Shown here: positions 7,582-10,661 of the stretch, in pieces | Layout: each line of letters opens with the position of its first letter | Position numbering within the stretch: position 1 is the stretch's first letter | NCBI GenBank assembly: GCA_937872275.1 | Contig: CALMSE010000021.1 | Coordinates: 1-10,780 of the forward strand | Direction of reading: 5' to 3' | DNA length: 10,780 nt | DNA from: an uncultured Leucobacter sp. | Lineage (GTDB): Bacteria > Actinomycetota > Actinomycetes > Actinomycetales > Microbacteriaceae | The notes under the pieces: generated by a model | What the model saw: only the letters and a program-made list of their open reading frames with translations | What the model was told of the DNA's origin: nothing | Databases searched by the model: none | Translations under genes and position numbers: made by a program

Positions 7582-8976
7582 ATGAGTCAGGGAGCGACGC
7601 CCGTCCACCCCTACATCCCCAACTCGGCGCCGCAGACGAAGGCCGAGATGCTGAGGGCCATCGGCGTCGCCTCGATCGACGAGTTCTTCGCCGTCATCCC
7701 CGAGAAGCTGCGCATGCGGCGGCCGCTCGACCTGCCGCCGGCGCTCGCCGCCGAGAGCGAGCTCGAGCGCCACATGACCCGGCTGCTCGGCAGGAACGTC
7801 CCGGTGACGCAGGCGCTGTCGTTCCTCGGCTCCGGCTGCTACCCGCACCACGTGCCGGCGGTGTGCGACGAGATCAACCACCGCGCCGAGTTCCTGACCG
7901 CCTACGCCGGCGAGCCCTACGAGGACCACGGCAAGTGGCAGGCCATCTTCGAGTACACCTCGCTGATGGCCGAGCTGCTCGAGATGGACGTCGTCAACGT
8001 GCCGACCTACGACGGATACCAGGCCGCCGCCACCGCGATCCGCATGGCCGGGCGCATCACGAACCGCCCGCGCGTCATCCTCACCGACCTGCTCGCCATC
8101 GGCAAGCGCGACAAGATCGAGGCCTTCCTCGACGGCGTCATGGAGATCGACTACGTCTCCCCGCGAGCCGAGACCGGCCGCATCCACCTCGGGGACGTCG
8201 CGGCGCTCATCGGCCCCGACACCGCCGCGGTATTCCTCGAGACCCCGAATCTCTACGGGGTCATCGAGGTCGACGCACGGGAGATCGCCGAGCTCGCCCA
8301 TGCGAACGGCTCGATCGTCGTCTGCTCCACCGACCCCATCAGCCTCGGCTTCACCGAGGCGCCCGCGAGCTGGGGCGCCGACATCGTCTGCGGCGACATC
8401 CAGTCGCTCGGCATCGGCATGCACTACGGCGGGGCCAACGGCGGCTTCATCGCGACCCACGACGACGAGCGCTTCGTCTTCGAGTACCCGTCGCGCCTGT
8501 TCGGCCTCGCGCCGACGCGCGTCGAGGGCGAGATCGGCTTCTGCGACGTGGCCTACGAGCGCACCTCCCTCGCCATGCGAGAGGAGGGCATCGAGTGGGT
8601 CGGCACCGCGGCGGCGCTGTGGGGCATCACCGCCGGCGCCTATCTCGCGCTCATGGGCCCGGTCGGCATGCAGCAGCTGGGCGACACCATCGCGGCGCGC
8701 ACCCGCGAGGCGATGACCACGCTCTCGCAGGTGCCCGGCCTCGAGGTGCTGCACGCCGAGAGCCCGCACTGGCGCGAGTTCGCCGTGCGCTTCCCCGGCC
8801 GCACCGCGGGCGACGTGAACGCCGCCCTGCTGGCCCGCGGCATCTACGGCGGCGCGAGCGCCCCCGCCGTGCTCGGCCGCGGCGACGACGACACCGCGTT
8901 CACCTGCGTGACCGAACTGCACTCCGGCTCCGACATCGCGGAGCTCGCCGACGCCCTGAAGGAGATCCTCGCATGA
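7582..8976 (+). CDS. GcvPA-like PLP-fold subunit, divergent homologue of glycine decarboxylase subunit 1
   Basis: At 464 residues it has normal GcvPA length. True GcvPA/GcvPB form the P-protein that decarboxylates glycine and loads aminomethyl onto lipoyl-H-protein. Family features seen: KAEMLRAIGVASIDEFF (20-36), SFLGSGCYPHHVPAV (80-94), QAIFEYTSLMAELLEMDVVN (120-139), TYDGYQA (142-148), PNLYGVIE (222-229), STDPISLGF (249-257) and the C-terminal VTELHSGSDIAELADAL (443-459). Deviations from motifs I recall as conserved: Gx-YDHYIP is CYPHHVP; the YQPEISQGTLQ region is EPYEDHGKWQ (111-120); the ATSNICTNQAL region is GIEWVGTAAAL (336-346). GAGGAGG six bases before ATG 7582 fixes the start. The gene overlaps the next by ATGA. 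The substrate may not be glycine (inference). Confidence 0.9.
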   Translation: MSQGATPVHPYIPNSAPQTKAEMLRAIGVASIDEFFAVIPEKLRMRRPLDLPPALAAESELERHMTRLLGRNVPVTQALSFLGSGCYPHHVPAVCDEINHRAEFLTAYAGEPYEDHGKWQAIFEYTSLMAELLEMDVVNVPTYDGYQAAATAIRMAGRITNRPRVILTDLLAIGKRDKIEAFLDGVMEIDYVSPRAETGRIHLGDVAALIGPDTAAVFLETPNLYGVIEVDAREIAELAHANGSIVVCSTDPISLGFTEAPASWGADIVCGDIQSLGIGMHYGGANGGFIATHDDERFVFEYPSRLFGLAPTRVEGEIGFCDVAYERTSLAMREEGIEWVGTAAALWGITAGAYLALMGPVGMQQLGDTIAARTREAMTTLSQVPGLEVLHAESPHWREFAVRFPGRTAGDVNAALLARGIYGGASAPAVLGRGDDDTAFTCVTELHSGSDIAELADALKEILA

Positions 8977-10661
8977 CCGCCCACGACACGAACCCGGCAC
9001 CCCCGACCGCCGAGGAGCGCGCCGCGGTCGCCGATCGGCTGGCCAAGAGCGTCGAGAAGCCGCTGCTGCGCCGCTACCACGCGCCCCGGTGGGACGAGCC
9101 CCTCATCTTCCAGCTCGACGCCGAGGGACAGCGCGGCATCGAGGTGCCCCTCGCGCCCGAGGGAGCGCTCGACGGCAGCCCGGAGCAGGCCTTCCGCAGG
9201 CGGCGGCCCGCCGCGCTTCCGCAGCTCGGCCAGTCCCAGCTGCTGCGCCACTACCTGCGCCTCTCGCAGGAGACCCTGGGCGCCGACCTCAACGTCGACA
9301 TCGGCCAGGGCACCTGCACCATGAAGTACAGCCCGAAGATCAACGAGCGCTTCGCCGGTTCGCCGCAGTCGGTCCACACGCACCCGCTGCAGGACGCCGC
9401 GACGATGCAGGGCACCCTGCAGATCATCGCCGAACTGCAGGGCTGCATCGCCGAGGTCTCGGGCATGGACGCGGTGAGCCTGCAGGCGGGCTCGGGCTCG
9501 GCGGCGATCTACGGCAACGTGAAGATCGTGCAGGCCTACCACGCCGACCGGGGCGAGGCCGATCAGCGCGACGAGATCGTGACGACGATCTTCTCGCACC
9601 CCTCGAACGCCGCCACGGCGAAGACCGCCGGGTACAAGGTCATCACGCTCTACCCCGACGAGAACGGCTTCCCCGACCTCGACGCGCTGAAGTCCGTGAT
9701 CTCGGAGCGCACGGCCGCGCTGTTCATCACGAACCCCGAGGACACCGGCATCTTCAATCCGCGGATCACCGAGTACGTCGACGCGGTGCACTCCGTGGGC
9801 GGTCTCTGCGTCTACGATCAGGCCAACGCGAACGGCCTGCTCGGCATCGCCCGGGCGCGCGAGGCCGGCTTCGACCTCTGCCACTTCAACCTGCACAAGA
9901 CCTTCTCGACCCCGCACGCGTGCGGCGGGCCCGCGGCCGGCGCGATCGGCGCGACCTCCGAGCTCGAGCCGTTCCTGCCCGGACCGCGCATCGTGAAGGA
10001 CGCGAGCGGCTACTCCTGGGGGCCCCGAAGCGAGAACGCGACGGCGGACATCCGGCCGTTCTACGGGGTGATCCCGAATCTCATCCGCGCCTACGCCTGG
10101 ATCCGCGCCCTCGGCGCGGAGGGCCTGCGCGAGGTCGCCGAGATCGCCGTGCTCAACAACAACTACCTGCTCGCCGAGCTGCTGCGGATCGACGGCATGA
10201 GCGCCCCCTACGCGGAGGGGCAGCACCGCCTCGAGCAGGTGCGCTACTCGTGGCAGGAGCTGACCGACGAGACCGGCGTGACGAGCGGCGAGATCGGCGC
10301 CCGGATGGCCGACTACGGGATGCATTACTGGACCAGCCATCACCCCTACATCGTGCCCGAGCCGGTGACGCTCGAGCCGACCGAGACGTACTCGAAGCGC
10401 GAGCTCGACGAGTACATCGCCTCGTTGCGGCGCACGGCGGAGGAGGCGCGCAGCGCCCCCGAGACCGTGCGCACCGCGCCGCACCGCTCGGGCATCCACA
10501 CGATCGACGTGGACTCCACGACCGACCCCGACACCTGGGCGACGTCGTGGCGGGCCTACCGCCGCAAGTACCTCGGCGAGACCCGGCCCGAGACGCCCCG
10601 CTGGCGGGCTCCCGAGACGCTGCCGATGCGCGCGCGGCCCCCGAAGGCCCACCACCGATGA
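8973..10661 (+). CDS. GcvPB-like PLP subunit, divergent homologue of glycine decarboxylase subunit 2
   Basis: At 562 residues it is longer than the roughly 480-500 usual for GcvPB. The PLP lysine is Lys309 in CHFNLHKTF (303-311). Also seen: PLIFQLDAEGQRGIEVP (43-59), LLRHYLRLSQETLG (90-103), GTCTMKYSPKINE (113-125), MDAVSLQAGSGS (165-176), and EPTETYSKRELDEYI (468-482). Motifs that differ from those I recall in the family: AHGTNPA is SHPSNAA (208-214), DGAN is DQAN (282-285), GGGGPGxGP is ACGGPAAGA (316-324), and the PTVYFP region is WTSHHP (453-458). Retention of the lysine argues for an active PLP enzyme, and the other changes for a new substrate or carrier. The last ~60 residues (about 500-562) look like an added Arg/Pro-rich tail. 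AAGGAG eight bases before ATG 8973 fixes the start, which overlaps the gcvPA-like stop. Confidence 0.9.
   Translation: MTAHDTNPAPPTAEERAAVADRLAKSVEKPLLRRYHAPRWDEPLIFQLDAEGQRGIEVPLAPEGALDGSPEQAFRRRRPAALPQLGQSQLLRHYLRLSQETLGADLNVDIGQGTCTMKYSPKINERFAGSPQSVHTHPLQDAATMQGTLQIIAELQGCIAEVSGMDAVSLQAGSGSAAIYGNVKIVQAYHADRGEADQRDEIVTTIFSHPSNAATAKTAGYKVITLYPDENGFPDLDALKSVISERTAALFITNPEDTGIFNPRITEYVDAVHSVGGLCVYDQANANGLLGIARAREAGFDLCHFNLHKTFSTPHACGGPAAGAIGATSELEPFLPGPRIVKDASGYSWGPRSENATADIRPFYGVIPNLIRAYAWIRALGAEGLREVAEIAVLNNNYLLAELLRIDGMSAPYAEGQHRLEQVRYSWQELTDETGVTSGEIGARMADYGMHYWTSHHPYIVPEPVTLEPTETYSKRELDEYIASLRRTAEEARSAPETVRTAPHRSGIHTIDVDSTTDPDTWATSWRAYRRKYLGETRPETPRWRAPETLPMRARPPKAHHR

What the first reader, a model, noticed from the sequence alone, without database searches (positions are those of the whole stretch)
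7582..10661. Split P-protein-like PLP enzyme with altered active-site motifs, probably not housekeeping glycine decarboxylase
Seen: both subunits have the P-protein architecture and Lys309 of the GcvPB-like subunit sits in the expected HKTF motif. Many surrounding motifs are replaced (HGTNP to HPSNA, GGGGPG to ACGGPA, DGAN to DQAN, PTVYFP to WTSHHP; in the GcvPA-like subunit YDHYIP to YPHHVP and SNICTNQAL to EWVGTAAAL). Known: actinobacterial GcvP is usually one fused chain near gcvH and gcvT, and these motifs are near-invariant from my memory of the family. Inference: a paralogous decarboxylase or aminoalkyl-transfer enzyme for another amino acid or amine, or one with a dedicated carrier protein. 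I know of no described system with this layout.
Basis: partly seen in the sequence, partly recalled or inferred. Interest (0 to 1): 0.75.

Follow-up and report, generated by a model that had tools for sequence, protein, structure and literature searches.

The report
Glycine-decarboxylase lookalike with partner kinase
Two adjacent genes that databases would call glycine decarboxylase belong to a separate old enzyme family that travels with a kinase-like gene and, in many species, with sugar-removing enzymes, probably to break down an amino alcohol rather than glycine.

Summary
Window 7582-8976 (PA) and 8973-10661 (PB) encode the two halves of a P-protein-like PLP enzyme with Lys309 in HKTF and altered surroundings. 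NCBIfam would name both GcvPA/GcvPB. They are not this genome's housekeeping glycine decarboxylase: contig C147 holds a canonical fused gcvP-gcvT-gcvH set, and probes for gcvH and gcvT found nothing in 80 related loci or the window. In a 65-row tree, 37 paralogs form one clade apart from 28 canonical P-proteins (100/100); 25 PB and 21 PA columns are fixed differently. The near-constant partner is an ATP-NAD-kinase-like gene: within 4 kb after PB in 72 of 75 loci with room. The window holds an SDR and the cut-off first 36 codons of the kinase-like gene. In 43 of 80 loci a GH63 and a beta-galactosidase gene are also present. Best reading: a kinase plus PLP-lyase module for an amino alcohol, possibly collagen-derived 5-hydroxylysine in the glycosidase-linked loci. 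Substrate and reaction are inferred, not shown. Ten literature searches found no description of the module.

The parts
7582..8976 (+). PA: GcvPA-like subunit (464 aa), rebuilt DHG and EWVG stretches
   Evidence: PF02347 176 bits; NCBIfam GcvPA 439.5 over cut-off 364; 1wyt_A 219 bits; 21 fixed differences
8973..10661 (+). PB: GcvPB-like PLP subunit (562 aa), rebuilt active site
   Evidence: NCBIfam GcvPB 539.4 over cut-off 441; 1wyt_B 283 bits; 25 fixed differences
9897..9899 (+). codon of the expected PLP lysine, Lys309 in HKTF
   Evidence: HKTF in 120 of 120 listed relatives; role taken from the family
10672..10780 (+). first 36 codons of an ATP-NAD-kinase-like gene, cut by the contig end
   Evidence: translation; 25 of 35 aligned residues identical to the L080 member, 22 of 36 to the L008 member
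4946..5683 (-). short-chain dehydrogenase (ORF open to 5779; likely start at the ATG of MRGL)
   Evidence: PF13561 195 bits; 67% identical over 249 aa to the SDR after PA-PB-NADK in L011
5826..7355 (+). PucR-type transcriptional activator, likely regulator
   Evidence: PF07905 and PF13556; relatives beside PA-PB in 10 of 80 loci

Best explanation
SHOWN by sequence: PA and PB belong to a deep paralog clade of the glycine-decarboxylase P-protein that keeps the PLP-binding core but has a rebuilt active site, has no linked gcvH or gcvT in the loci read, and is nearly always encoded beside an ATP-NAD-kinase-like protein and mostly an SDR. INFERRED: it is a catabolic PLP lyase for an amino alcohol. 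The kinase-like protein phosphorylates the hydroxyl. PA/PB forms the aldimine with the neighbouring aminomethyl group (H2N-CH2-, as in glycine) and eliminates phosphate, giving an aldehyde and ammonia; SDRs process substrate or product. Lineage-specific enzymes free the amino alcohol first: GH63 plus beta-galactosidase where it comes as a sugar ether, amidohydrolase or M20 deacylase where its amine may be blocked. In the glycosidase-linked loci the best candidate is 5-hydroxylysine from the Glc-alpha1,2-Gal-Hyl of collagen. Odds: not a glycine decarboxylase 0.92; amino-alcohol catabolism 0.5; hydroxylysine in the glycosidase loci 0.4; phospho-elimination as the chemistry 0.3. The figure below is for the middle claim, a kinase plus PLP-lyase unit for an amino alcohol.
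For: Second, canonical gcvP-gcvT-gcvH in the genome. One clade of 37 paralogs at 100/100. NADK-like gene within 4 kb after PB in 72 of 75 loci with room and directly before PA in 6 of 7 plasmid regions of a second subfamily; GGDGTARD conserved in the members shown. gcvH and gcvT probes: 0 of 81 stretches. GH63 plus GH42 or GH2 in 43 of 80 loci. GH63 of L017 is YgjK-like, 476 bits; GH42 of L040 matches solved beta-galactosidases, up to 508 bits; importer protein of L017 is nearest to 6q5g and 6h0h, the latter a beta-1,6-galactobiose binder. Glc-alpha1,2-Gal on hydroxylysine is the collagen unit (PMC8626586 passages). Amidohydro_3 in 7 of 10 PucR loci, M20 deacylase in 3 Chloroflexota loci and in 2 plasmid regions.
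Against: No activity is known. The NADK-like protein may be a true NAD kinase or a repair enzyme. Three loci with 10 kb of room lack it: L034, L068, L078, and so does Natronosalvus. Pfam's GH63 model here is named for mannosylglycerate hydrolase, and the GH63 of L046 is nearest, weakly, to a mycobacterial hydrolase and TTHA0978 (47 and 38 bits), so its bond is open. The window's own setting has no glycosidases, so hydroxylysine is less secure there. Known amino-alcohol phospho-lyases are of another PLP family. An aldehyde dehydrogenase, expected for the product, was found beside PucR in only 5 of 10 loci. Loci are related to one another and unevenly sampled.
Confidence: 0.45

Rival explanations
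1. Retro-aldol lyase: PA/PB cuts the C-C bond between H2N-CH2 and CH(OH)R, giving the same PLP-aminomethyl carbanion as glycine decarboxylation, and releases an aldehyde plus methylamine. It would parallel sphingosine-1-phosphate lyase, a decarboxylase-family enzyme that acts after a kinase (recalled).
For: Keeps the intermediate of the ancestral enzyme; core PLP residues unchanged; kinase-like partner.
Against: Gives the kinase no obvious need for hydroxylysine; no methylamine-use genes noticed in the neighbourhoods, which were not searched for them.
Confidence: 0.2
2. Decarboxylase or other PLP enzyme for an alpha-amino acid other than glycine, with a free product and no carrier, in an amino-acid catabolic operon.
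For: P-protein ancestry; ornithine-aminotransferase-like, M20 and saccharopine-dehydrogenase-like neighbours in some Chloroflexota loci; proline-racemase family gene in L071.
Against: Does not explain the kinase-like gene or the glycosidases.
Confidence: 0.22
3. A second glycine decarboxylase that borrows H-protein and T-protein from the housekeeping set.
For: Passes NCBIfam GcvPA and GcvPB equivalog cut-offs; a gcvH match exists in 29 of 29 genomes searched.
Against: Canonical P-protein already present in 27 of 29 of those genomes and in the window's genome; separate clade; 46 fixed differences over both chains; no linked gcvH or gcvT.
Confidence: 0.07

Closest known systems
Glycine cleavage system P-protein, split form GcvPA/GcvPB (Thermus, PDB 1wyt)
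   Same: Two-subunit architecture, PLP lysine in HKTF, His and Asp of the PLP site; detected over nearly full length
   Different: 25 PB and 21 PA fixed differences, separate clade, no gcvH or gcvT linkage, kinase-like partner
Second plasmid subfamily of GcvPA/GcvPB-like pairs (Rhodococcus, Paracoccus, Gemmobacter, Sphingomonas and others)
   Same: Joint clade at 100/100; shares 12 of 25 and 10 of 21 derived residues; NADK-like gene before PA in 6 of 7 regions
   Different: 42-47% PB identity; other residues at Q283 and H457; other neighbours such as APC permease, AMP-binding protein, amine oxidase; also without known function
Hydroxylysine kinase plus 5-phosphohydroxylysine phospho-lyase (mammalian; recalled)
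   Same: Proposed logic: kinase, then PLP elimination of phosphate beside an aminomethyl group
   Different: Class III aminotransferase fold and APH-type kinase there; P-protein-like and NADK-like proteins here
Sphingosine kinase plus sphingosine-1-phosphate lyase (recalled)
   Same: Kinase followed by a decarboxylase-derived PLP lyase on an amino alcohol
   Different: Other PLP family, lipid substrate, C-C cleavage

Membership tests
Glycine decarboxylase (GcvPA/GcvPB) | Match to the family models over their cut-offs | tested here: met
   439.5 over 364 and 539.4 over 441 bits
Glycine decarboxylase (GcvPA/GcvPB) | PLP lysine and core PLP residues | tested here: met
   HKTF in 120 of 120; H209, D282, K309 same in both groups
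Glycine decarboxylase (GcvPA/GcvPB) | Conserved active-site motifs of canonical P-proteins | tested here: not met
   25 PB and 21 PA columns fixed to other residues
Glycine decarboxylase (GcvPA/GcvPB) | Branches inside canonical P-proteins | tested here: not met
   37 paralogs against 28 canonical rows, 100/100; with the long row L144 kept, the paralogs are still one clade next to it
Glycine decarboxylase (GcvPA/GcvPB) | Linked gcvH or gcvT | tested here: not met
   0 of 81 stretches with the own-genome probes at E 1e-6; probes find their own locus
Glycine decarboxylase (GcvPA/GcvPB) | Glycine decarboxylation with lipoyl H-protein | not testable with these tools
   needs an assay
5-phosphohydroxylysine / ethanolamine-phosphate phospho-lyase | Class III aminotransferase family | tested here: not met
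   no PF00202 match at 1e-3; PF02347, PF21478 and PF00266 instead
5-phosphohydroxylysine / ethanolamine-phosphate phospho-lyase | Beta-elimination of phosphate from an amino-alcohol phosphate | not testable with these tools
   proposed mechanism only
NAD kinase (PF01513/PF20143), for the partner | Kinase domains with GGDGT motif | tested here: met
   L008 member 59.9 and 33.8 bits; GGDGTARD in the aligned members; no NCBIfam match at 1e-5 for two members, no solved relative at E 0.1 for one

The most novel reading that the evidence does not exclude
A glycine decarboxylase was converted, together with an NAD-kinase-fold kinase, into a new kinase plus PLP-lyase pathway for amino alcohols that spread across bacteria and archaea; in soil actinobacteria and sediment Chloroflexota it lets cells use the glucosyl-galactosyl-hydroxylysine of collagen, a route for which I know of no bacterial genes.
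Probability: 0.22. Interest if true: 0.85.

Novelty: new variant of a known kind. Interest (0 to 1): 0.66.

Why it matters
A conserved enzyme family present in many species is labelled glycine decarboxylase by curated models, so one-carbon and amino-acid reconstructions of these genomes miscount it. If the amino-alcohol reading is right, it adds a PLP chemistry to the P-protein fold, gives a role to ATP-NAD-kinase-like proteins of unknown function, and may explain how glycosylated hydroxylysine of collagen is recycled by microbes. The compact operon makes this directly testable.

Tried and rejected
Dedicated lipoyl carrier: not found; gcvH probe 0 of 81 stretches. Other carrier types (for example biotinyl or acyl carrier domains) were not searched for. 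Ordinary glycine decarboxylase: set aside on the second gcvP set and the trees. Hydroxyproline as the glycosylated core: set aside because a secondary amine does not form the usual PLP aldimine (established chemistry). Structure model of PB: mean pLDDT 63, too poor, so no fold search was run and residues were not placed on a structure. Literature: ten searches listed no paper describing this module; that covers only the held open-access library and those terms. Papers were seen as listings with abstract starts, plus passages of PMC8626586, PMC9061262, PMC7263609 and PMC8106489.

Rows left out and limits of counts: the 80 loci are the best 80 of 530. Trees used 29 of these 80 plus the window, 15 of the fetched fused rows and 15 split canonical rows; one search left out L143 (partial) and L144 (long branch) and had no PA counterpart; the PA trees are quick ones. 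With L144 kept the paralogs are one clade with L144 next to them, flagged as a possible long-branch join. Neighbour layouts come from a simple ORF caller that mis-called some high-GC frames, so the counts given come from tblastn. The GH42 genome search was run on 33 genomes that had been picked for GH42 at the locus; it shows only that such genes are few per genome. Seven of 25 plasmid hits were opened.
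Full report
What is there. The window is G000 contig C21 from 1 to 10780 of a 2.57 Mb draft genome, 77% complete in 346 contigs. On the plus strand lie a PucR-type activator (5826-7355), PA (7582-8976), PB (8973-10661, overlapping PA by ATGA) and the first 36 codons of an ATP-NAD-kinase-like gene that runs off the end (10672-10780). A short-chain dehydrogenase (4946-5683, open to 5779) is divergent from PucR; its nearest relative among the loci is the SDR directly after PA-PB-NADK in Brevibacterium L011, 67% identical over 249 residues.

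It is P-protein-like. PB aligns over most of its length with Thermus GcvPB (1wyt_B, 283 bits) and PA with Thermus GcvPA (1wyt_A, 219 bits). NCBIfam's GcvPA and GcvPB equivalog models both pass their cut-offs, so automatic annotation will call it glycine decarboxylase. Lys309, His209 and Asp282, the expected PLP contacts (roles recalled), are unchanged.

It is not the housekeeping enzyme. The same genome has, on contig C147, a fused gcvP with canonical motifs followed by gcvT, gcvH and a gene I read as L-serine dehydratase. Of 37 genomes of the genus searched with PF02347 (G000 included; some incomplete), only G000 shows a match of this kind besides fused gcvP pieces. In a sample of 396 Actinomycetota genomes 3 have a match at E <= 1e-150, G000 included. 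Of 29 other genomes that carry the pair, 27 also have a strong canonical P-protein match (E <= 1e-100); the exceptions are the Bathyarchaeota draft (a partial match of 141 bits) and the Latescibacterota draft. All 29 have a gcvH match, weak (40 bits) in the Latescibacterota draft. Probes made from this genome's gcvH and gcvT found nothing at E 1e-6 in the 80 related loci or the window, while they find their own locus. The loci reach up to 10 kb each side, but many are cut by contig ends.

A separate clade. Quick trees of 60 rows put 30 pairs of this kind together with SH-aLRT 100, in PB and in PA. Adding seven plasmid-borne relatives and building PB with care gives 37 paralogs against 28 canonical rows at 100/100. 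PB of the window is 60-80% identical to 29 family members, 42-47% to the plasmid subfamily, 32-38% to canonical split forms and 29-31% to fused forms. Twenty-five PB and 21 PA columns are fixed to different residues. The plasmid subfamily shares 12 and 10 of these derived residues and keeps the canonical one at 2 and 2, so an ancestral change was followed by tuning at other sites such as Q283, H457 and S211. Rows labelled Bathyarchaeota, Brockarchaeota and Thermoplasmata sit among Chloroflexota rows, which suggests horizontal transfer, or misbinned contigs, as these are metagenome drafts.

The company it keeps. A pattern scan of species genomes found 530 places encoding a relative; the best 80 were read. 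An NADK-like gene lies within 4 kb after PB in 72 of 75 loci with at least 1.5 kb of room; L034, L068 and L078 lack it. The GGDGTARD stretch is conserved in the alignment of 41 members. An SDR relative of at least 100 bits is in 64 of 80. In 6 of 7 plasmid regions opened, the NADK-like gene is directly before PA; Natronosalvus is the exception. PA, PB and the kinase-like protein therefore look like one working unit.

Three settings. (1) Mostly Actinomycetota: GntR regulator, sugar-type ABC importer, GH42 beta-galactosidase and a GH63 enzyme. 43 of 80 loci have both a GH63 and a GH42 or GH2 gene, 45 have at least one. Four of them (L045, L046, L052, L066, Chloroflexota) have another type of GH63 and a LacZ-type GH2. 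L040 has GH42 beside an importer of another type and no GH63. (2) The window's setting, with PucR, 10 of 80 loci: Amidohydro_3 and a 3-hydroxyacyl-CoA-dehydrogenase-like protein in 7 of 10, an MFS transporter in 6, an aminobutyraldehyde-type aldehyde dehydrogenase and a TPP enzyme in 5. The window's genes left of the SDR do not recur as a block in the loci. (3) Chloroflexota and archaea: a short run PA-PB-NADK-SDR, sometimes with a second SDR and a GntR regulator. L022, L061 and L078 also have an ornithine-aminotransferase-like and an M20 deacylase gene; L022 and L061 a saccharopine-dehydrogenase-like gene.

From company to substrate (inference). The enzyme uses PLP, so the substrate bears an amine. 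Where the unit is linked to glycosidases the substrate may arrive bound to sugar through a hydroxyl; where linked to amidohydrolase or M20 deacylase its amine may be blocked. Both fit an amino alcohol. The GH63 of L017 most resembles E. coli YgjK (476 bits). Passages of one paper say YgjK has a Km of about 230 mM for nigerose and that its natural substrate is assumed to be another alpha-glucoside (PMC9061262); another shows YgjK with glucose and lactose, galactose in subsite +1 (PMC7263609). I recall, but saw in no call, that its glycosynthase product was Glc-alpha1,2-Gal. The importer protein of L017 has 6q5g and 6h0h as its two best solved relatives; 6h0h is a beta-1,6-galactobiose-binding protein (PMC8106489). 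Glc-alpha1,2-Gal on hydroxylysine is the collagen unit (PMC8626586). Hence 5-hydroxylysine, H2N-CH2-CH(OH)-R, is the best candidate for setting 1. Against this: Pfam's GH63 model is named for mannosylglycerate hydrolase, and the other GH63 type is only weakly related to solved enzymes, the best being a mycobacterial hydrolase and TTHA0978.

Mechanism (inference). The kinase-like protein phosphorylates the hydroxyl; PA/PB, built to hold H2N-CH2-COO in the ancestor, holds H2N-CH2-CH(OP)R instead and eliminates phosphate. Retro-aldol cleavage, decarboxylation of another amino acid and a second glycine decarboxylase are the rivals, in falling order of how well they explain the kinase-like gene.

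Limits. No activity is shown. Specificities were read from relatives. The loci are related to one another and unevenly sampled. The PB structure model was too poor to use. The literature search covers a held open-access library only.

Noticed in passing
window 1-2064, minus strand: An NtaA/DmoA-type flavin monooxygenase fragment (TIGR03860, 139 bits, below its cut-off) beside an HsaA-like flavin monooxygenase (224 bits, below its cut-off). They do not recur in the related loci apart from one weak HsaA match.
   Followed up: partly
window 1964-4862: Three different regulators in a row: IclR type (minus), TetR type (plus) and a Fis-type protein with an AAA lid but only weak sigma-54 ATPase matches (minus).
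   Followed up: no
L148 (Paracoccus aminophilus pAMI4), L153, L154: The second subfamily sits in Rhodobacterales plasmid clusters with a sugar-type ABC importer, a dihydrodipicolinate-synthase-family gene, FAD or 2Fe-2S oxidoreductases and an IclR regulator; its substrate may differ.
   Followed up: partly
L149 and L151 (Rhodococcus qingshengii and Gemmobacter fulvus plasmids): NADK-PA-PB beside an APC permease, SDR and AMP-binding or acyl-CoA synthetase genes; Gemmobacter also has a primary-amine oxidase, pointing to an amine substrate.
   Followed up: partly
L071, 13510-14565: A proline-racemase-family gene lies between two SDR genes in the Chloroflexota operon.
   Followed up: no
NCBIfam models NF001696 and NF003346: Both equivalog models score this paralog family above cut-off, so it is named GcvPA/GcvPB in public records.
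   Followed up: yes
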